Shown: positions 1,152 through 20,289 of the stretch, in pieces | How the letters are laid out: each line of letters begins with the position of its first letter | How positions within the stretch are numbered: position 1 is the first letter of the stretch | DNA from: a virus | DNA length: 26,048 bases | IMG/VR virus record: IMGVR_UViG_3300007735_000541 | Coordinates: 1 to 26,048 of that record | Reading direction: 5' to 3' (one strand) | Notes under the pieces: model-generated | What the model was told of the DNA's origin: nothing | What the model saw: the letters and a program-made list of their open reading frames with translations, nothing else | Database searches by the model: none | Made by a program: the position numbers and the translations under genes

Positions 1152-1331
1152 TTAGTTCCGCCAAGTCTTATTAGCGTGGCTAATATCCTCATTAAATCTT
1201 CTAATCATTGCCATCATGGTCAGTTTTTCCACGATCTTCTTGTTCTTCTTGACCCAAGCCACGGCCTCATCAAAGGATTCTGCGTCCTTCAACCCAGCCT
1301 CAAACTTAGCCCACGCCTCTTTCTCGTTCAC
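1152..1331 (-). CDS. Small helical protein of unknown function
   Basis: I do not recognise this protein. It is predicted to be helical and Lys/Glu-rich, with an AEF-like pattern DAESFDEAVAWVKKNKKIVEKL and a C-terminal FNEDISHANKTWRN. The start is uncertain. The frame is open up to a TTG at 1373 (73 residues), but a GTG at 1331-1329 overlaps the TGA stop of the upstream nuclease by four bases (GTGA). That matches the coupled starts used elsewhere in this genome, so I prefer the 59-residue version. Neither start has a strong Shine-Dalgarno. Its place between two nuclease genes suggests a DNA-metabolism or host-interaction role, without direct evidence. Confidence 0.5.
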   Translation of the reverse strand: MNEKEAWAKFEAGLKDAESFDEAVAWVKKNKKIVEKLTMMAMIRRFNEDISHANKTWRN

Positions 1332-1711
1332 AAATTCTGAAATACCCGCCAGTTCTGACCTGTCGATGGGCAAAGTTTAGTTGTTATGCTTTTACACTTG
1401 GCAATTGGCAATAGCCAGAATAGATCATCGTTCATGCCCCAGCAGGCAACGTAATCTACACCACTGATCGCACGCTTGGGAATATTGAAGCCATTGCCAC
1501 TAGAAGTGGTGAAACGATACTTGGTGCGCCCAGGTTCTATTGCTTGCGCAGTTTTAACTTGGATGCGAAAGAACTTGTTATTCTTCTCAGCCACTACATC
1601 GTACCCAGCAAAATCCTCGTAAGGCGTAAGAACGTTGTATCCACACCGCAACAATGCGCCAGTAACGCGAGCTACCCCAACTGCTCCAACTTGGCGCGAT
1701 GATAATTTCAT
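1328..1711 (-). CDS. PD-(D/E)XK endonuclease-like protein (PF11645-type)
   Basis: This 127-residue protein resembles the small PD-(D/E)XK endonucleases related to intron-encoded and group I-associated nucleases (Pfam PDDEXK_1-like). Visible motifs are a leading helix MKLSSRQVGAVGVARVTGALL, then CGYNVLTPYEDFAGYDVV (D38 of GYDVV), and FRIQVKTAQ (Q51, K53), which corresponds to the (D/E/Q)-x-K strand of this family. The helix Glu that often precedes (GxxxE) is not obvious, so activity is uncertain. The open frame extends to a TTG at 1759, but the ATG at 1711 starts exactly at the family-like N-terminus and avoids overlapping the divergent gene at 1750, so I use it. It follows no other leftward gene closely and may begin its own transcript from the short divergent gap. 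Confidence 0.55.
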   Translation of the reverse strand: MKLSSRQVGAVGVARVTGALLRCGYNVLTPYEDFAGYDVVAEKNNKFFRIQVKTAQAIEPGRTKYRFTTSSGNGFNIPKRAISGVDYVACWGMNDDLFWLLPIAKCKSITTKLCPSTGQNWRVFQNL

Positions 1712-1749
1712 GCTTGACGGCTTTTGGTTTGTCCTAGAGACTTTTCCCA

Positions 1750-2127
1750 ATGAAAGCAATAATAACTATAACACTGACGGCGATGCTGATGGCATCGGGG
1801 TTGGCGGAAGATGAAACCGAAATGAACGACTTTATTGGAGGAGTCTATCGTGGAGGCGGAAATGTTCATAGGGCTGGTAGTGTAATTATGACTGAAGATG
1901 GATTGATATTTAAATCTGGAAGTAGGTTTATTTATCAAAATGGGCAGGTATGCCAGCACGTTGGATCAACATATCTTCGTGAAGATAATAGCGTTGTTGT
2001 TCGCGCTGGTAGTGCATTTGTGTCAAATGATGGTTTAACCGAAAAGGTTGGGTCTTGCTATATTGGTCCAGTTAATTCATTTACTGCTGGGTCAACCACA
2101 GTAAGGCAAGGCTGGGCAAGCCGTTAA
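1750..2127 (+). CDS. Secreted repeat protein with signal peptide (plus-strand insert)
   Basis: This 125-residue protein is the only convincing plus-strand gene inside the leftward block. Residues 1-19 look like a Sec signal peptide (MKA start, hydrophobic ITITLTAMLMASG, likely cleavage after GLA, before EDE). The rest is built from about five 14-15-residue units beginning x-G-S: AGSVIMTEDGLIFK (42-55), SGSRFIYQNGQVCQH (56-70), VGSTYLREDNSVVVR (71-85), AGSAFVSNDGLTEK (86-99) and VGSCYIGP (from 100). This periodicity suggests a small beta-solenoid. Cys68 and Cys103 could pair in the periplasm. I do not recognise the family. Its orientation and secretion suggest a moron-type cargo gene acting on the host envelope, for example superinfection exclusion; that is inference. 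No strong Shine-Dalgarno is visible upstream of the ATG. Confidence 0.6.
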   Translation: MKAIITITLTAMLMASGLAEDETEMNDFIGGVYRGGGNVHRAGSVIMTEDGLIFKSGSRFIYQNGQVCQHVGSTYLREDNSVVVRAGSAFVSNDGLTEKVGSCYIGPVNSFTAGSTTVRQGWASR

Positions 2128-2136
2128 CCCTGCCCA
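2113..2136. terminator. Possible bidirectional terminator at converging gene ends
   Basis: TGGGCA (2113-2118) and TGCCCA (2131-2136) can pair around a 12-base loop exactly where the plus-strand gene (ending 2127) and the minus-strand muralytic gene (ending 2124) converge. There is no flanking T-run on either side and the stem is only 6 bp, so this is a weak candidate based mainly on position. Confidence 0.22.
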
Positions 2137-2858
2137 AAGGTTGACAATCTATTCCTAATCCTAGCCTCTAGGCCAGGAATGAACTTCTTTCGGTTTGGGT
2201 CAAGCTCTGCTCGCTTGTACTCATCCTGCAATTGAGCATCGCTGGCCGCACGCATCAATGCCCTTGGCTCAACTTGGTTAATTGCTGCTAGAGTTTTAGG
2301 TCCAAGCCCACCATCTACCGCCACCCTCTGCCCTAGCGTATTCAATCCTTGCTGGATGTACTTCGTTGCACCGCCCAGCCCACGATTAAACGCGAGATCC
2401 TGCGTGAATGGTTGGAGTGCTTGAGGGAGTCTTTCAACGAGTGGCGCGGTATATCCTTGGATGTACTCTGCCGCTGCTTTCGCTCTTTCTTGCGCTGGGA
2501 GCGACGAGATGGCCTTGAATGCTTCTGGATGGTATCGGTCATTGATTCCAGCTACTTCAAAGTTTCCACCCATATCACCAGTTGGCAACTTGTAGACCGA
2601 AAGATTACCCTGCTTATCCTTGCGACCCTCCCACTCCACGGTTTGCAATGGTAACGGAAGCTCTCCAGATGGCTGCTGTACTGGTGCTGTTGGAGGTTTA
2701 ACGAATTCGCTCATGGGTTCTATCCTTGCGGTCTGTTCTGATGGTTGCTGTGGTGGTTTTGTGTAAGGCTCAAACTCCATACGGATCGCGTTATTACGAT
2801 CCTGCTGGCTTAATCCAGTTTGGCGTGACGCTGATCCAGAGATGTCAAATTTAGCCAT
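2124..2858 (-). CDS. Virion-associated muralytic protein, GH108-like with peptidoglycan-binding domain
   Basis: The 244-residue protein has a Pro/Gln-rich N-terminal linker (about residues 30-70) followed by a region resembling glycoside hydrolase family 108 (phage N-acetylmuramidase). It includes EWEGRKDKQG with candidate catalytic Glu77, then PTGDMGGNFEVAGIN (about 92-106), which parallels the DPADPGGxTxxGIT motif of the family. A C-terminal segment LAFNRGLGGATKYIQQ and VDGGLGPKTLAAIN (about 155-194), then FIPGLEARIRNR, matches the putative peptidoglycan-binding domain paired with GH108. It would cleave peptidoglycan, either during DNA entry or for lysis. The N-terminal extension and the position right after the giant virion protein favour a particle-associated role. 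No other endolysin is seen in the window. AAGGAG precedes the ATG, and the gene starts one base after the upstream stop. Confidence 0.65.
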   Translation of the reverse strand: MAKFDISGSASRQTGLSQQDRNNAIRMEFEPYTKPPQQPSEQTARIEPMSEFVKPPTAPVQQPSGELPLPLQTVEWEGRKDKQGNLSVYKLPTGDMGGNFEVAGINDRYHPEAFKAISSLPAQERAKAAAEYIQGYTAPLVERLPQALQPFTQDLAFNRGLGGATKYIQQGLNTLGQRVAVDGGLGPKTLAAINQVEPRALMRAASDAQLQDEYKRAELDPNRKKFIPGLEARIRNRLSTFGQG

Positions 2859-5800
2859 TTATTCTCCTTGTTGCATCATAAGCTCTCGGCCTATTTCTTG
2901 ACGCTTCTGCATCTCCTCTGGAGATAGCTCGCGTCTCATGCTTTTTGTGAGTGACTTGCTGATCTTGTAGTCTCTGTACTTGTTGTTGGCTATGGCTGAA
3001 GCATTGTCTACGCCCATCCCGCCAGCACGCATTGCAGATATGGCCTCAGACCTAGACAGACCAAGCAACATAGCAGCGTGGAAGTCTTTATTGGCCTCAT
3101 CGAACATAATCCTGCGCCTGTTCTGCATCTTCTCAAACTGTTCCCGTACCTTCGCTTCTGGAACATTGCCAACCGCGCCATAGGTTTCCGTGAAGATCCT
3201 ACCAACATCAGCCATATCAGTATTAAACCTGGATGCCTTCGATTCCAATGCCTTGGATACGTTTATGGACTGAGGACGGATACCGAACAGTGCTGACAAC
3301 TCCTCGGATGGCTTGTAAATACGGCCATACTTGGAAACAGTTGTGTCGGGTTGGCCGCTTAGTGCATATCCAATCCTTCGAATTTGGGATACAGTTGCTG
3401 GTTCATTTTGACGCAAAATATAAGAGATTGTATCAAGCGATTGATCGGTCAAAGTGTCCTGCGGGTTGCGAATTGTTCTGCCTTGCGGTGCTTTGCCGTA
3501 ATATGCAGATATGATTGAGTTCGCTAAAATGCTTGGACCAATATAAGACTCTGTAAAATCTTTGATTGCACCAAATATTGATTCCTCTGGATCTCTTCCA
3601 GAGACAGCCGCTTGCATGGGGCCAAAGAATATCTCATAGGGGCTAGTGTAAGATATGTCCACATAGCCAACATCTTTCCCGTCCATTCCAGTAGGCATAA
3701 GAGAAGCGTTCTTTTGATATGGCGCAACAAACCTTCTCAACGCATCGACCTTTCTGTCGTTAAATCCAGTTGCCCATTTCCCAATTGCAAGAACTCCCAT
3801 AATTGCGGATGTTCCCGCAATCATTCCAGCCAATCTTTTGAATGCGTACTTCCGCATTCCAGGTGTCCTGTAATCCTCTGCTGCATATCGCACTGTATTT
3901 GGAAGAGTCCGCAATATTTCAGAAGGCCAAGATACAAAGTTTCCAATCAATGGCTGCAAACGAAACGCCTTAATGATTCTTGGCACGCGAGAGTAAGTTG
4001 GCCTTGTGTTCTTAACGCGCTCGGCTGCGATCACCTCTGCCTCCTGGCGAGATAATCCTCTTCCATCCATAAGTTGCTTCGTTTCGTTCTCCCAAGCCAT
4101 TAACTTGAACAAATTATCTCCAGCGCGATAAGTTCTGTTCAATGCCTCAACACCCTTCTTTAGAACATTTGCGCTTTTACCAGCAAGTTCTTCAGCAAGG
4201 TCAATTGTCGACCCCTTGTACTGCTGTGCATCTTTGAGCATTTGTGTAAATTCATTAAGAACCGTGTTGTCGTATACGCCAAGCTGGGCAGCGCGAGTAA
4301 GATATGCCCTGCCTTCTTTTGTATCCACAGAAGGAACTCCAAATTCAGCCAATATTGTCTTTACTGGCTTTAGGTTCCCGCCAAAATTGAAGTTCCCATT
4401 AACGACTTCGATCAATACGTTTGAAATAGGATTTCTAAACTGAGCCTGAATACTTCCAACTGTCTTGCCCCACTTGACCCAAGCATTCGCCATTGAATAA
4501 AGCTGAAACAATGTTCCTCCTTTATGCATCATCTCAAAATTCTCAATCGCATCGACCAAGTCTTTCTCTGCGTATAGCCCATTTAACGGAGAGCGAGTAT
4601 CAGAGCCATCAGCCGCAATCTGCGTAGCTGCATTTCCAGTTGGTCTTTCAAAGAATAGCTTGTTTGCAACTCCAAATTCTTTCAGCTTGTTCAACTGCTC
4701 TTGTGATTGGAGCAAGTTAATCATCTTGCTGGCTGATCTGGCATAGTTAATTACTGGATCGGTGTACTCGCCCATCAAATATCTGATCTGTTCTGGAATA
4801 TCTTGTCTCGCCTTTGTGATCCCAAGTTTCTTTCCAATTCCAGATGCTTGAATCAATGACTCAAACGGCTTGTCCTTTCCACCCTCAATCAACTCCTTGA
4901 TCTTGCCCTGCACTTCAGCTTCGGTTATCGCTGGATTTGCAGCCTTCATTTGTGTCCTCATAAAATTCTCTGCTATTGCAAATTTATTTGGATCTCGCTT
5001 TTTCACAAGCTCTACTGTGTAGTTGGGGTTATCATCTCTTTCATAAGAACGAGTCAAATACTGTTCTTTGTTCATTCTGATAACGTCAGCCTTGCTCATT
5101 CCAGACGGACCGACCTCTTGTGAAAACACGCCTGCTTGGATTAAACCCTCAGATAAGTTATCTAGTTGACGGCGCATTTGCTGTACTATGGGTCTGATTG
5201 GACTTGGAAGATTCTCTGCTGGTAAATAACCACGCAGGAACTGATCAACCTGTATTGTTTGTTGTTCGGTTAGCTTCGGACTTCCATTAAGTTCCCTGGC
5301 GGCTTTGGCTAGATCCTTCAGCGTAAAATCAATCTGCTTCAGCATCGCCTGCGTGCGCGATCCTTTAGCTTCCATAATGTCAAACATCTCTTTTGGAAGA
5401 TTGCCTTCCGTGGTAAGCCACTTCTGCGCTACCTTGGCCGCGCCTTCCTGCACATCGGATACAACAAACCCAGCCTCACCAGCTTTGCCACGCATAGGGC
5501 GAGGGATGGTGGGTTGAGACTTTTGCTTTGCAGAGAATTTGCCCAATTCTGACATTAACTGATCTGCATAAAATTCTGGTTCTCCAGACCTTTTGCCATA
5601 TTCAAATTGATCTACTTCTTGAGCGTTTTCGTATTTCTCAAGTATCTCCTTTAACTTTTTAGTACCAGCCACATCTGATTCGTCTAATATATTTCTTAAC
5701 CTATAGGCAACATCAGCTTCTGTTATGTCCTCTTCTGCTGAATCATATTTTTCGTATAAATCAATTATTTTTGATTTTCCAATCTCAACTTGTTTTGCTG

Positions 5801-7226
5801 GCTCAACGGCCTGCGTAGCCTTTGCTTCAATAATTGGTTGTTCGCCTGCTGGCAACGCCAACCTCTCGCCACTAGGCAACTGCGTCCTTGGCGTAACAAT
5901 CGGACCTTCGCGCACAATCTCGCCTTGCAATCCGCGAGTATCTGGAATAATGGCCTCACGATTGATGCCTTGGGATTCAATTGTAAATACGTTTGTCTTC
6001 GGCACTGGATCGTTTAGATCCACTAAGCTTTCCTGCATTTGCGTTGTGATTCCACGCCGTTGCATTTCGGCTGTATCGGCTGCCGTACCACGCACGCTTC
6101 CACGCACTCCAACCTCTGGCAACTGTTCCTGCTGGACTACGGTAGCCTGCTTAATTGGACGCTCTTGTGGCTGTGGCCTTGCAACTTGAATCTCGGTAGA
6201 TGTTGGTGCTTGTAGTGGTTCGTAATAAGGACGAACTTCTGTAGGCGCACCGCCTTCAAGGCTTACTTTATCAAGAACAGTTTTACCACCAAGTTGCACT
6301 TCGGTACGTTTGGCTCGCTCAACTCCAGTTGCCTGCGTCCTTTGTGCCTCGTTAAGGATTTGTTGCCAATCACGAACTTCAGCAGGCGTTGCCCTGCCAC
6401 CCTTAACCTTGTAATTAAGATCCTTAAACTCGTTGAAATTGTATCCCTTAACCCTAGACCCACTGCCAAGCCCAGCATAAAGCGCACCGAACAGAGCGTC
6501 CTCGGCAACTGTGCCAGGAGTAACCTCTGTGCCAGTAATAGCCCTAACTCCGCTTCCAACAGCCGCGCTAACTCCAGCGGAAGTACCAACTGCTTTACCA
6601 AGTTCTTGCGCGGCTCGTTTTGCGCCTAATTCTTGAAACAATGTTTTGCCAGCTTGTACTAACTGCTTCGCCCCAACCGTACCCGTAACAACTTCTGGCG
6701 CGTACTGACCAGCCATTGCGTAACTTGGAGCAAACTCTCTTGACCTTGCAACCTTTGGTGTAAATTTTTGTAGGCCAGATTCTGCTAATTCCCCAGCCGC
6801 AATTGCTCCTCCAATTGCTAGTGCTGGCACGGCCACTGGAGCAACAGGACCAGTAAATGCTCCAGCAATAGCTCCACCAAGACCACCAAAAGTGCTTGCT
6901 GCTCCCTTAACCAACCCAGCCGTAAGCGCAGCCGCCTTCACATTGGCAGGAACATCGACAGCCTCTTTATTTACGAAGTCATCAATTTCAATGTCTTGCT
7001 CTGGCGTATAATCTTTAAGAGTGGATGCGTACTGCTTGGTTTCTGCACCCCATTGGCGAGCTAGGTCAACCTGCTCTGGATAGGTAAGGGTCTTGTAATC
7101 TTCGGAAGCCTTGATCTCGCTCCACGCTGGAGGTTCTTCTAGCTTTGGTGCTGGCTCTGCCTCTACTGGCATACCTGCCAGTTGCCTAATACGATTGGCT
7201 GACGATAGCTCTAGGGCTTCAGCCAT
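2859..7226 (-). CDS. Giant virion/ejection protein (1455 aa)
   Basis: At 1455 residues this is the largest gene and sits where T7-like phages encode internal virion (ejection) proteins. The N-terminus is acidic and helical. Residues about 97-148 form a Gly/Ala-rich hydrophobic stretch (GLGGAIAGAFTGPVAP, then PALAIGGAIAAGELAE), followed by a long Pro/Gln/Arg-rich low-complexity section (about 290-480). The second half is mostly helical. It includes TRPTYSRVPRIIKAFRLQP followed by a FVSWPSEILRTLPNT segment and a second hydrophobic helix near residues 1130-1156 (LAGMIAGTSAIMGVLAIG). This C-terminal half resembles the large polyvalent-protein-associated domains of phage giant proteins (LPD38-like), with moderate certainty. 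The likely role is to be packed in the capsid or neck and ejected to form a conduit across the cell envelope. It is followed immediately by the muralytic gene, consistent with a split transglycosylase function. Confidence 0.6.
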   Translation of the reverse strand: MAEALELSSANRIRQLAGMPVEAEPAPKLEEPPAWSEIKASEDYKTLTYPEQVDLARQWGAETKQYASTLKDYTPEQDIEIDDFVNKEAVDVPANVKAAALTAGLVKGAASTFGGLGGAIAGAFTGPVAPVAVPALAIGGAIAAGELAESGLQKFTPKVARSREFAPSYAMAGQYAPEVVTGTVGAKQLVQAGKTLFQELGAKRAAQELGKAVGTSAGVSAAVGSGVRAITGTEVTPGTVAEDALFGALYAGLGSGSRVKGYNFNEFKDLNYKVKGGRATPAEVRDWQQILNEAQRTQATGVERAKRTEVQLGGKTVLDKVSLEGGAPTEVRPYYEPLQAPTSTEIQVARPQPQERPIKQATVVQQEQLPEVGVRGSVRGTAADTAEMQRRGITTQMQESLVDLNDPVPKTNVFTIESQGINREAIIPDTRGLQGEIVREGPIVTPRTQLPSGERLALPAGEQPIIEAKATQAVEPAKQVEIGKSKIIDLYEKYDSAEEDITEADVAYRLRNILDESDVAGTKKLKEILEKYENAQEVDQFEYGKRSGEPEFYADQLMSELGKFSAKQKSQPTIPRPMRGKAGEAGFVVSDVQEGAAKVAQKWLTTEGNLPKEMFDIMEAKGSRTQAMLKQIDFTLKDLAKAARELNGSPKLTEQQTIQVDQFLRGYLPAENLPSPIRPIVQQMRRQLDNLSEGLIQAGVFSQEVGPSGMSKADVIRMNKEQYLTRSYERDDNPNYTVELVKKRDPNKFAIAENFMRTQMKAANPAITEAEVQGKIKELIEGGKDKPFESLIQASGIGKKLGITKARQDIPEQIRYLMGEYTDPVINYARSASKMINLLQSQEQLNKLKEFGVANKLFFERPTGNAATQIAADGSDTRSPLNGLYAEKDLVDAIENFEMMHKGGTLFQLYSMANAWVKWGKTVGSIQAQFRNPISNVLIEVVNGNFNFGGNLKPVKTILAEFGVPSVDTKEGRAYLTRAAQLGVYDNTVLNEFTQMLKDAQQYKGSTIDLAEELAGKSANVLKKGVEALNRTYRAGDNLFKLMAWENETKQLMDGRGLSRQEAEVIAAERVKNTRPTYSRVPRIIKAFRLQPLIGNFVSWPSEILRTLPNTVRYAAEDYRTPGMRKYAFKRLAGMIAGTSAIMGVLAIGKWATGFNDRKVDALRRFVAPYQKNASLMPTGMDGKDVGYVDISYTSPYEIFFGPMQAAVSGRDPEESIFGAIKDFTESYIGPSILANSIISAYYGKAPQGRTIRNPQDTLTDQSLDTISYILRQNEPATVSQIRRIGYALSGQPDTTVSKYGRIYKPSEELSALFGIRPQSINVSKALESKASRFNTDMADVGRIFTETYGAVGNVPEAKVREQFEKMQNRRRIMFDEANKDFHAAMLLGLSRSEAISAMRAGGMGVDNASAIANNKYRDYKISKSLTKSMRRELSPEEMQKRQEIGRELMMQQGE

Positions 7227-10327: not shown

Positions 10328-10696
10328 TTAAACCCTAGCCTTTCGCATAAATGTCATATAGTCGTAACTCCTTGGTTTACCAGAACGATTAAATGTGATC
10401 CGCTTGCGAGGACCAAAACGCTCCCATAGGAGCAACAGCAAGCATCGTAAGGATTTAGCACCTTTTGAGGAGATAGTCAAATCAACAAACACATTCTCAC
10501 CATCCTCGCTATGCACATAATGGTCAGGCTTTTGCCCATCCTTGACGCACCTAGCCAGAGCTACCCCAGCAATACCATCCTCATCCCTAACAATCCCGAC
10601 CATCCCCTGTTTCTCAAACCATCCGAACCAATCAGCTAGGTTAGGCCACATAGCCTCTGGAACACTGCTCTGCTCAATATACTCCACAGCCGTCAT
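10328..10696 (-). CDS. Putative GNAT-like / gp13-like phage protein
   Basis: This 122-residue protein has no firm family match. The pattern [19 protein letters not shown], then a Trp-rich helix, [21 protein letters not shown] and [25 protein letters not shown] is reminiscent of an acetyltransferase-like fold: a central beta hairpin, an acyl-CoA-loop-like turn at SSKGAKSL, and a following helix. In T7-type phages a gene at the same place (gp13) encodes a small protein required for assembly of virion internal components. Its ATG overlaps the nozzle stop (ATGA), indicating coupled translation. Residue-level support for an active transferase is lacking, so treat the name as a suggestion from order and fold pattern. 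Confidence 0.4.
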
Positions 10697-12510
10697 ATAT
10701 TCTTTTGCACCTCGATTGTGTCGGGGTTGGCAGCAAGCATAATTTGCTTAATCGAAAGCTTCCTAGCTGGAGCTTCCATCTTAAACTTCATATTACGCCA
10801 CTTCTGATAAGACCTAAGACTATCAGCCCTAAAGTTGTAGGTCTGAGCCGAAAGCGTTGCTGGGAGCGTGAATGGCAGAGTCAATCCTCCTGGTGTCGAT
10901 GTGTCAACATTTGTCCCAATTGTCACATACTGAGAATCGGTTTCCCGCTTCATCCCTATTGTGCATCCAGTAGCCGTAGAATAATAAAACTCCATCTCAT
11001 AGTGCGACCCATACTTCTTTGAAATCCTATCGTCAAAATCGTAAGCCTTGGTCACAACGTAAGATGTATACGAGGTTCCGTAGTCCTTAAATTCGGTATT
11101 GCCATCACCCTGTAGGTCTGGGTCAAGATAATCGTAAAGATGCCCAACCTGCCCTGTAGGACTACCAATTGCAAGCTTTACGCAGTTTGTGGAGTACCCG
11201 CCAGAGAAGTTAGTCTTTGTCATTGCACTTGCGGCTATAGACCATAATCCCTCAAACGATCCAAACAGCGTGTTGTAAACAAGCACATAATTGCAGGTTG
11301 TCGAGTTGTCCAGAGGAAGAGCCAGATAATACCTGTTATTGTGGAACGCAGCGTTTGCAGAACCAATATAACCCCTATTTATTCTTGCTATTACATTCTT
11401 GACTTGCTCGGTAAGAGTTGGGCCTACTGTGTAGAAATCATCAGCTGCTGACCTTACAACGCTTCTTATTCCGTCATTAGACAGGAATAATACATCCTTA
11501 TTTGTGAAAATTGCAGACCCAGATGCTTGACATCCAACCTTGTCGTTAACCAACCTTACAGTCCATCCAGCAGCAGTTGTTGCTGTGGGGTCGACAGTAA
11601 CCAGGTAAATCTTGTTTGGCTTGAAAACAAGCAATTCAAAGTCAAAGAATGGCTGGATGGCAATAATGTCTTCGCCGTCATTACCTCCGACAACAATTGT
11701 ATTTGTTGTTTTCCATACTTCAGCATCAAGAATGTCTGACGCATAAAGCGTGTTTCGGTTTGCTCCAGTTCCTACGGCAAACAAGCGATTAGTAAACTGC
11801 CGAATGAGCCGAAGGCCAGAAGGCGCGAGAGCAGAAATGCTCGCTGTGGCTGTTGCGCTAGATCCACCCCCGCCAGTAATTGTAACCGTAGGTGCTGAAG
11901 TATATCCCGATCCAGCGTTTGTAACGGTAATGGCAGACACCTTATTTGATACAACTGTTGCAACCGCTGTGGCTGTCGTTCCGTAGGTTAGGCTTGGCGC
12001 GCTAATTGTTACTGTTGGTGCTGATGTATATCCTGTTCCATCATTTGTAACTGTAATAGAAAGAACGCTTGTTCCCTGTCTGTAATAACTTGTTCCATCA
12101 GTAAAGGATAGATTGCTTGCTCCGTCAGTATAATAGAGCTTGTTGTTAAACTGTGAAAAACTTACGCTAACAGCCCCGCTTGTTACGGTTCCAGCAGTAG
12201 TTCCAAAGCTTGTTGAGCTTGTGGAGTTAAATAACTTTCCGTTGCACGCCACAACAATTCGCTCAATGTCAGGCGTATCAAAATAGTGCATCCCTTGAAT
12301 TCCTGATCCACTTGAAACGTTTGCAGATACTTGTTCAATCCCTTGCCTAGTCTGGAGGATTCCAGACGGGCTGATTGTCATATTGTAAATATCGCTGGCT
12401 TGGTTGTTGCCAATTAGGCTTGGAGAAATTCCAGAAGCTTGCCCACCCTCAAAGCTGGAAGATCCAGCAATTGACAGTACATCGTCTGTTGTGTCTATGT
12501 AGTAAGGCAT
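10693..12510 (-). CDS. Tail tubular protein B / nozzle (T7 gp12-like)
   Basis: At 605 residues this protein has the beta-rich make-up of podoviral nozzle (stabilisation/tail tubular B) proteins. Visible propeller-like motifs include [24 protein letters not shown] near the N-terminus, [77 protein letters not shown] and [15 protein letters not shown]. It would form the distal tail tube below the adaptor and gate DNA exit. An apparent insertion at residues about 148-226 carries two copies of a [12 protein letters not shown] repeat. The gene follows the adaptor by 11 bases with AAGGAAGG upstream of the ATG, and it overlaps the next gene by four bases. Confidence 0.75.
11833..12069 (-). repeat. 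Two-copy [11 protein letters not shown] repeat insertion in the nozzle gene
   Basis: Residues about 150-170 ([19 protein letters not shown]) and 192-212 ([19 protein letters not shown]) of the nozzle protein are near-identical units 42 residues apart, followed by Thr/Ala-rich linkers. Such units occur widely in phage and cyanobacterial surface proteins and are probably small beta modules. Here they interrupt the propeller-like body between [11 protein letters not shown] and [15 protein letters not shown] and are likely surface-exposed decorations. Confidence 0.6.
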
Positions 12511-14911: not shown

Positions 14912-15727
14912 TTATATAACTCTTGCAAGCGTGTTCATTAGGGTTGTGATTCGTGAATCTAAAAGAGCCAAATCAATGTTTGTTCCAAGCGAATAAAAAG
15001 ACATTCTGGCATCACTATATTGAGCAGAAGCACCATTATTAAAAACAGCTATTGCACCAGAAGCAAGTGTGGTAGATGTTAAGCCACTTATTGTATTTGT
15101 TTGTGAACTTCTAATTACTGTATTTGTAGATGAATTTCTTGAATGACCCTTAAATCCAATTGTTGTTCCTTCTCCTGTAATTGTTGCTCCTCCTGTTGGC
15201 GAACTTCTATTTTTTATATTTAAGTTTCCAGTAGTATTACTTAACATCCAAAGTCTCCCACCAATAGCAACCGATTGACCCATAAACATTCTTGCTACTG
15301 TTGCTGAAATTGTTGGTGCTTGAGTTACATAGCAAGAAATGTGCGTGTTGTCTTGTGGAAATGATGCATTTGTATTGTTGTATGAAGTAGAAATAAATTT
15401 TGTTGATGCGTCTCCAAGCAATCCAAGAGTTCTGCTGTAATCGCCAGAAACAAAGTTGTTGTTTGTAGGTGCGTTTCCAACCATAGGAGTAATTGCCCCT
15501 GCTACCGTTTTTGCCCCAGCCATAATGCAAGAGGCTACAAGTGAAGTCCAGATTCCGTCAGCTTTGCATCCAAGAACAAAAGCGTTAATAGCTCCTCGAA
15601 CTTGTGATTCAAGTCTCTGCCCATCTGCGGCCTCAACTCGCAGAATGTAATCCCTTGCGTCTGGATCGAATAATCTGTTTTTAATTCGATTAATAGGCAA
15701 CGGTTCAACTGCCGAAAATAATGGCAT
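14912..15727 (-). CDS. Putative receptor-binding tail protein, lectin-like
   Basis: The 271-residue protein has a recognisable phage tail-protein N-terminus: FDPDARDYILRVEAADGQRLE, INAFVLGCKADGIW, ASCIMAGAKTVAGAITPMVG and NNNFVSGDYSRTLGLLGDASTKFI. This segment recurs in many environmental phage tail-spike or fibre proteins. The rest is a beta-rich Ser/Thr/Asn region (for example HISCYVTQAP, RLWMLSNTTGNLNIKNR, FYSLGTNIDLALLDSRITTLMNTLA) that fits a concanavalin-A/LamG-like jelly roll. It most likely helps bind the host surface. It lies between small virion genes and the tiny lipoprotein cluster. The fold assignment is inferred from pattern only. Confidence 0.55.
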   Translation of the reverse strand: MPLFSAVEPLPINRIKNRLFDPDARDYILRVEAADGQRLESQVRGAINAFVLGCKADGIWTSLVASCIMAGAKTVAGAITPMVGNAPTNNNFVSGDYSRTLGLLGDASTKFISTSYNNTNASFPQDNTHISCYVTQAPTISATVARMFMGQSVAIGGRLWMLSNTTGNLNIKNRSSPTGGATITGEGTTIGFKGHSRNSSTNTVIRSSQTNTISGLTSTTLASGAIAVFNNGASAQYSDARMSFYSLGTNIDLALLDSRITTLMNTLARVI

Positions 15728-19438: not shown

Positions 19439-19777
19439 TTACTCGGCTACTGGTTCATCCGATCCATCCCCATAGCCTGGGATGGCGGAGTTAAGTTTTT
19501 GGGATGCGAGCGATTCTAAGGTCGCTACACAACCACGAAATCCTTTAGCATAACCACAAGCGTCTGCAAGTGCCTCTGATTTCTTCATCACAGCAGAGCT
19601 ATTCTGGCGCAGGGTTAGGTTAAGCAAAATCAAACTTAGCTTCTGACCAGTAGGAGTTGACAAGAATCCTGTCCACGCCTTCTCATCCTCATCTTCCCAC
19701 TTAGGTTCGTTGACCCATTCTTGGTTGCGGATGAACGCTAATGCTGCTTTTAGTTTTCTCATAGCTTTATTGCCCAT
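19439..19777 (-). CDS. Small protein of unknown function in head operon
   Basis: The 112-residue protein (MGNKAMRKLKAALAFIRNQEWVNEPKWEDEDEKAWTGFL) is helical with no recognised domain. A C-terminal CGYAKGFRGCVATLESLAS segment could pack against the helix LLNLTLRQNSSAVMKKSEALADA. The ATG at 19777 has AAGG seven bases upstream and overlaps the methyltransferase gene by 19 bases. An alternative ATG at 19762 overlaps that stop as ATGA and would give 107 residues. Its place between methyltransferase/portal and scaffold suggests a head-assembly accessory role. Confidence 0.45.
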   Translation of the reverse strand: MGNKAMRKLKAALAFIRNQEWVNEPKWEDEDEKAWTGFLSTPTGQKLSLILLNLTLRQNSSAVMKKSEALADACGYAKGFRGCVATLESLASQKLNSAIPGYGDGSDEPVAE

Positions 19778-20289
19778 GAATCGCCTTGGAATAGCGTATA
19801 GTCCTTTTGTCCTATTTCCTCAAGCAAAGCCTTCTTGATTGATTCCCAACTCCAATCGTGACCAGCCATAATTCCGCCTTCTTTAAGCTTCTTACGCCAG
19901 CCTTTTAGGTCTGCCAGCACGCCTTCGTACCTATGATCTCCGTCAATATAGACAAGATCACAAGACCCATCCTCAACAAATTCAAGTGCATCCAGACTTT
20001 TTCCGCGGCTATACATCACGTTCTTTAGATCACCTGTACGCTCTTGGAAAGCATCAAATACAAACTTCATTGGGCATTGCTGACTTGCCCTATCGTTAAT
20101 GTCGTATCCGTTTAGCCAAGGATCTACTGCTAAAACGTCCTTAAAATACTTGGCTAGTACTACCGTTCCCTCGCCACTATACGCGCCAATCTCAACCGCC
20201 TTACCAGTTGCGCCTTGCTCGTTAGCCCACTCACAAAGATGTTTTAAGCCTTCCGCTTGGAAGGCATCCCGCATTACTGGTACTTTCAA
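19759..20289 (-). CDS. Class I SAM-dependent methyltransferase (Methyltransf_24-like)
   Basis: The 176-residue protein shows a Rossmann methyltransferase of the Methyltransf_24/CmcI type. Motif I is AVEIGAYSGEGTVVLAKYF (residues 31-49, glycine-rich SAM loop), the acidic residue after strand 2 is in AVDPW (D56), and motif IV with the following helix is DLVYIDGDHRYEGVLADLKGW (residues 111-131), followed by LKEGGIMAGHDW (135-146). Members of this group usually methylate small molecules or glycans, sometimes with a metal held by acidic and His residues such as D116, D118 and H119 here. Starting at TTG 20289, it overlaps the portal stop (TTGA); a second candidate start is the ATG at 20274. Its place in the structural operon suggests it may modify a virion or envelope component, but no substrate can be read. 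Confidence 0.7.
   Translation of the reverse strand: MKVPVMRDAFQAEGLKHLCEWANEQGATGKAVEIGAYSGEGTVVLAKYFKDVLAVDPWLNGYDINDRASQQCPMKFVFDAFQERTGDLKNVMYSRGKSLDALEFVEDGSCDLVYIDGDHRYEGVLADLKGWRKKLKEGGIMAGHDWSWESIKKALLEEIGQKDYTLFQGDSWAIKL

What the first reader, a model, noticed from the sequence alone, without database searches (positions are those of the whole stretch)
1750..2127. Lone plus-strand secreted repeat protein in a leftward genome arm
All surrounding genes are leftward, yet this 125-residue ORF points the other way, has a Sec signal peptide, and is built from five units of 14-15 residues starting x-G-S, indicating a beta-solenoid. Two Cys may form a disulfide. This looks like an inserted moron gene that alters the host envelope; I know of no named family with this repeat in phages.
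Basis: partly seen in the sequence, partly recalled or inferred. Interest (0 to 1): 0.6.

Follow-up and report, generated by a model that had tools for sequence, protein, structure and literature searches.

The report
Secreted phage protein with swappable repeats
A small exported protein of an uncultured phage group sits in a fixed genome slot behind a constant promoter and export signal, while its repeat-built body exists in at least 14 exchangeable types; this suggests, but does not prove, a specificity module for keeping rival phages out of the infected cell.

Summary
The + strand ORF 1750-2127 encodes an exported-type 125-aa protein with six G-S steps spaced 13-15 residues (0 of 200,000 shuffles match). 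It is a real gene: dN/dS within its class is 0.07. It is not an inserted moron. In 140 of 140 related loci with enough flank, the slot PDDEXK_5 nuclease< | gene> | <endolysin is occupied, and relatives found by the repeat alone lie only there. Promoter and signal peptide belong to the left (nuclease) block. The mature domain falls into at least 14 classes (mostly 20-50% identical) that swap behind identical signal peptides: one 57-nt leader serves 8 subclasses. TTGAC begins 34-36 nt before the ATG in 107 of 107 intervals, which fits a leaderless sigma70-type transcript. No Pfam, NCBIfam, PHROG, PADLOC, PDB or named-phage match was found. AlphaFold gives 12 short strands (pLDDT 85.5), but Foldseek finds no solenoid. 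Class correlates best with the neighbouring large virion protein and endolysin and not with the nuclease; linkage could explain this. Best reading: an envelope superinfection-exclusion protein with exchangeable specificity (inferred, about 0.4). Novelty: an orphan family with unusual modular architecture, working like known exclusion proteins.

The parts
1714..1742 (+). Conserved promoter-like element: TTGACG (1714-1719), 17 nt, GAGACT (1737-1742); predicted start of transcription falls at or next to the ATG (leaderless mRNA)
   Evidence: coordinates; TTGAC 34-36 nt before ATG in 107/107 intervals and 34-38 nt in distant relatives; no Shine-Dalgarno before the ATG. The -10 is weak (3 of 6), so the generic scan did not list it
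1750..2127 (+). The gene: exported variable repeat protein, 125 aa, class C2
1750..1806 (+). Signal peptide MKAIITITLTAMLMASGLA, the constant part; exchanged independently of the mature domain
   Evidence: identity between main classes 52-82% in signal versus 25-47% in mature; one identical 57-nt leader in front of 8 mature subclasses
1807..2124 (+). Mature domain: short acidic/helical start, then six G-S beta repeats of 13-15 residues (G at residues 43, 57, 72, 87, 101, 114)
   Evidence: AlphaFold2 model
1328..1711 (-). PD-(D/E)XK nuclease (PF11645 PDDEXK_5), divergent neighbour that shares the intergenic promoter region
   Evidence: E 2.5e-15; weak resemblance to homing endonucleases (PADLOC HEase 0.0034; PDB 2ost 0.036)
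2124..2858 (-). Endolysin-like protein (PG_binding_3), convergent neighbour whose stop codon overlaps that of the gene
2859..7226 (-). Large virion protein (1455 aa), position and size of a podovirus internal/ejection protein; occurs as three unrelated types in relatives and is the best sequence correlate of the mature class
   Evidence: phrog_22602 virion structural

Best explanation
The gene makes a small exported (periplasmic or envelope) beta-repeat protein of a probably virulent, podovirus-like phage group. Most likely it acts as a superinfection-exclusion protein: it is made from its own host-type promoter as a leaderless mRNA, exported by Sec, and in the envelope interferes with entry of related phages, either at injection (contact with the incoming phage's internal or muralytic proteins) or at a receptor. 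Shown: real gene, export-type leader, repeats, fixed slot, conserved promoter geometry, exchangeable discrete mature classes each under purifying selection, best correlation with the adjacent virion protein and endolysin block. Inferred: expression time, location in the cell, the exclusion function and its target.
For: Fixed slot, opposite strand, 140/140 related loci with room and 107/107 intervals; relatives found only through the mature repeats are again in the slot (51 loci, 30 of them examined in detail). Own TTGAC-17-GA(G/T)ACT element at constant distance. Discrete types: 14 classes, mostly 20-50% identical, mature dN/dS 0.07-0.19 inside classes, exchange behind identical leaders; this is the pattern expected of maintained specificity types. 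Class correlates with the large virion protein (Mantel r 0.44, p 0.001) and endolysin (0.28, p 0.001), but not with nuclease (-0.02) or capsid (0.06), and only weakly with tail fibre (0.12). Precedents: P22 SieA blocks DNA injection, escape maps to ejection proteins, exists as three types about 25% identical, and its gene lies next to ejection gene 16 (PMC10883804); T5 Llp, a small exported protein of a virulent phage, blocks the receptor from the periplasm (PMC9586334); CwpV, exported, with constant anchor and five repeat types, blocks DNA injection (PMC4737114).
Against: No homology to any exclusion protein. No lipobox and no transmembrane segment in the mature part, unlike Llp and SieA. The correlation with the virion protein can be plain linkage: only the 735-bp endolysin gene lies between, clustering gives mature-endolysin AMI 0.70 against mature-virion protein 0.53, and within virion-protein type I no neighbour predicts the class. 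In P22 the two tested SieA types had the same target range, so type diversity need not mean specificity. Host and phage are uncultured; nothing is known of expression.
Confidence: 0.4

Rival explanations
1. Lysis partner: the exported protein binds or inhibits the endolysin (or a virion muramidase), delaying lysis or shielding the wall, and its class is matched to endolysin type.
For: It neighbours the endolysin gene in all loci, with overlapping stop codons in the window; class and endolysin cluster share the highest mutual information (AMI 0.70); T4 Sp is known to inhibit the tail lysozyme (background in PMC4737114).
Against: Six classes (C2, C4, C5, C6, C8, C11) occur with one endolysin cluster, so endolysin type does not fix the class. 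Opposite strand and separate promoter are unusual for a lysis cassette.
Confidence: 0.17
2. Surface modifier or decoy unrelated to related phages: the protein coats the infected cell or debris (for example against grazers, other phages or re-adsorption of progeny) and diversifies with host surface types.
For: Export, repeat architecture, discrete types under purifying selection; a weak tail-fibre correlation (r 0.12, p 0.036).
Against: The tail-fibre correlation vanishes after control for the virion protein (0.09, p 0.085); no anchor motif seen.
Confidence: 0.2
3. Virion-associated or secreted accessory protein whose mature domain is reshuffled only because recombination is frequent there (nuclease-stimulated exchange), the types being functionally equivalent.
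For: Adjacent PD-(D/E)XK nuclease with homing-endonuclease resemblance; left block (nuclease, promoter, leader) and right block recombine freely.
Against: Classes are old and discrete, with strong constraint inside each (dN/dS 0.07-0.19); free drift would not keep few well-separated types in one slot.
Confidence: 0.15

Closest known systems
P22 SieA (PMC10883804)
   Same: Phage gene beside the ejection-protein gene, own promoter, types only about 25% identical in one genome position; escape mutations in ejection proteins
   Different: SieA is an inner-membrane protein of a temperate phage, found in 22 of 66 P22-like phages; ours has a signal peptide, no transmembrane segment in the mature part, beta repeats, and is present in every relative seen
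T5 Llp (PMC9586334)
   Same: Small exported exclusion protein of a virulent phage, acting from the periplasm
   Different: Llp is an acylated lipoprotein; ours lacks a lipobox and has no match to a named family
CwpV of Clostridioides difficile (PMC4737114)
   Same: Exported; constant N-terminal part and several alternative C-terminal repeat types; blocks DNA injection
   Different: Host-encoded, cell-wall anchored, repeats of 79-120 residues, phase variable
Single-layer beta-sheet and hairpin-repeat proteins (OspA, TCP10 G-box, MORN) and beta-solenoids
   Same: Short tandem beta strands joined by G-containing turns
   Different: Foldseek finds no match at E <= 1e-3; topology unresolved

Membership tests
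Any named protein family (Pfam, NCBIfam, PHROGs, PADLOC) | Profile match above the curated cut-off | tested here: not met
   no match for the window protein; best PHROG E 0.29
Sec-exported protein | Positive n-region, hydrophobic core, small residues before the cleavage site | tested here: met
   by composition only; SignalP was not available
Phage exclusion lipoprotein (Llp/Cor type) | Lipobox with Cys at the cleavage site | tested here: not met
   GLA|ED in the window, no Cys at +1; the listed relatives likewise carry A or G followed by acidic residues there
SieA family | Sequence homology and inner-membrane helices | tested here: not met
   mature parts have no 17-mer above mean hydropathy 1.64; no family match. 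A direct alignment with SieA was not made
Superinfection-exclusion function | Expression blocks infection by related phages | not testable with these tools
   needs host and phage
Beta-solenoid | Coiled parallel strands, match to solved solenoids | tested here: inconclusive
   12 strands, pLDDT 85.5; no Foldseek match at E <= 1e-3; coordinates not readable here; a second class gave only pLDDT 54.7
Moron (inserted accessory gene) | Present in some relatives and absent from the same site in others | tested here: not met
   slot filled in 140/140 loci with room
Moron (inserted accessory gene) | Own promoter, opposite to neighbouring genes | tested here: met
   (promoter by sequence only)

The most novel reading that the evidence does not exclude
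A phage 'immunity-type' locus: a constant leaderless promoter and signal peptide into which interchangeable specificity domains are recombined, each exported protein excluding phages that carry the matching injection or muralytic module, so that incompatibility groups of virulent phages are set by one swappable cassette.
Probability: 0.25. Interest if true: 0.78.

Novelty: new variant of a known kind. Interest (0 to 1): 0.52.

Why it matters
Exclusion proteins of virulent phages are known from few models. A core gene with a fixed address, constant expression and export parts and at least 14 exchangeable bodies would offer a ready-made natural series to ask whether exclusion types define incompatibility groups among co-occurring phages, and whether they track injection proteins. 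It also defines a new exported beta-repeat family absent from the family libraries searched.

Tried and rejected
Chance ORF or antisense artefact: rejected by conservation, dN/dS 0.07 and slot constancy. Inserted moron: rejected. Prophage-expressed gene: no integrase of either kind in 50 records, although many records are fragments. Tail-fibre or receptor matching: weak and lost after control. Specific matching to the large virion protein: first looked strong, but clustering shows the endolysin is at least as informative and within type I nothing predicts the class, so I do not claim it. Sliding-window search for an interaction region in the virion protein showed none. Bacterial homologues or host: genome scans gave no relative of the protein and, for the terminase, one fragmentary lake-MAG contig at 66% plus three remote matches. 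The fold of class C1 was of low confidence and its fold search uninformative. Named phages: no match for four classes.

Full report
Observation. The ORF at 1750-2127 (+) is as described: 125 aa, start MKAIITITLTAMLMASGLA followed by acidic residues, then G-S steps at residues 43, 57, 72, 87, 101 and 114. Shuffling the mature part 200,000 times never gave five spacings of 13-15. Its neighbours are leftward: a PD-(D/E)XK nuclease (1328-1711, PF11645, E 2.5e-15) and an endolysin-like protein (2124-2858, PF09374). The stop codons of gene and endolysin overlap. The window is a 26,048-base virus record with a podovirus-like set of genes (terminase, portal, capsid, tail fibre, large virion protein); its terminase is closest to Akkermansia phages at 37% and its portal is below 30% to any named phage, so the group is uncultured and the host unknown.

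It is a core gene. A search with the protein found 43 relatives. To avoid selecting by the gene itself I fetched relatives of the two neighbours. All 140 of those loci with enough flank hold both neighbours, and all 107 unique intervals between them hold one rightward ORF, about 112-144 aa. A further search using only the mature repeats again returned genes in this slot: the 30 loci examined, including all contigs not seen before, lie opposite to whichever neighbours are present, even where the nuclease is only 49-55% identical. Limits: each neighbour search kept the best 80 of 162 and 175 matches, so more distant genomes may differ.

Two-part architecture. The mature parts form 14 classes at a 60% threshold, mostly 20-50% identical to one another, while the signal peptides of the main classes are 52-82% identical (alignment). 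One identical 57-nt signal-peptide sequence stands before 8 mature subclasses, and class C2 (18 members) has 18 different leaders. Pairwise identities show two blocks: left genes, nuclease, promoter and leader vary together (Spearman 0.5-0.7), but the mature part is unrelated to them (0.06-0.11) and weakly tied to endolysin and virion protein (0.2-0.36). Exchange therefore happens at or near the signal-peptide border. Inside classes the mature part is under strong purifying selection (dN/dS 0.07-0.19), so types are stable alternatives, not a rapidly mutating surface.

Expression. TTGAC starts 34-36 nt before the ATG in all 107 intervals (three have a second copy at 21) and 34-38 nt in deeper relatives, followed after 15-18 nt by GA(G/T)ACT or similar. 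By the usual geometry of sigma70 promoters the transcript would start at the ATG, and there is no Shine-Dalgarno sequence, whereas many other genes of the window have one. This is an inference from sequence; the -10 is weak and the generic scan does not score it.

Structure. AlphaFold2 on 36 family members gave mean pLDDT 85.5 with 12 short strands, two per repeat. Foldseek found nothing at E <= 1e-3 in PDB or BFVD. Loose, non-significant hits include single-layer sheets and hairpin repeats (OspA, TCP10, junctophilin), so a solenoid is not established. A class C1 model was poor.

What does the class go with? Capsid, portal, terminase and nuclease are mostly above 90% identical to the window across much of the group, but the large virion protein exists in three unrelated types. 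In 38 records the mature class correlates best with this protein (Mantel r 0.44, p 0.001), then endolysin (0.28), terminase (0.27, 21 records), tail fibre (0.12), capsid (0.06) and nuclease (-0.02). This would fit exclusion at injection as in P22 SieA (PMC10883804). But the three genes are adjacent, cluster-based information is higher for the endolysin (AMI 0.70 against 0.53), and inside type I several classes circulate with no clear correlate. I therefore report the association and leave linkage as a full alternative.

Interpretation. A small exported protein with its own host-type promoter, on the opposite strand of the late genes of a phage without a detectable integrase, with exchangeable, stably maintained types, most resembles superinfection-exclusion proteins in how it would work (SieA; T5 Llp, PMC9586334; CwpV repeats, PMC4737114). 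It is not a member of any of these families by the tests made here. Rivals are an endolysin partner, a surface decoy, and functionally neutral recombination.

Noticed in passing
2859-7226 and relatives (for example L209:1867-5529, L215:9556-11631): The large virion protein next to the endolysin is replaced by unrelated proteins (three types, about 700 to 1,600 aa) in phages whose capsid, portal and terminase are mostly above 90% identical.
   Followed up: partly
1328-1711 (-): PDDEXK_5 nuclease is 91-100% identical in many phages with endolysins only 54-77% identical and weakly resembles homing endonucleases; it might promote local exchange.
   Followed up: partly
L115:3593-4384, L098:3716-4507: Two relatives carry an extra 263-aa gene between endolysin and the variable gene, with an HEYGH motif suggestive of a zinc peptidase.
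   Followed up: no
14912-15727 (-): A 271-aa phrog_17104 protein found in only 2 of 40 records, an accessory or fast-changing gene near the tail fibre.
   Followed up: no
19759-20289 (-): An ORF that looks like a SAM-dependent methyltransferase (by eye, not searched) sits between portal and capsid genes and is absent or only 25% identical in some relatives.
   Followed up: no
10693-12510 (-): This structural protein occurs in about two forms (about 41% or 58-91% identical to the window) that do not follow the rest of the genome, another mosaic site.
   Followed up: no
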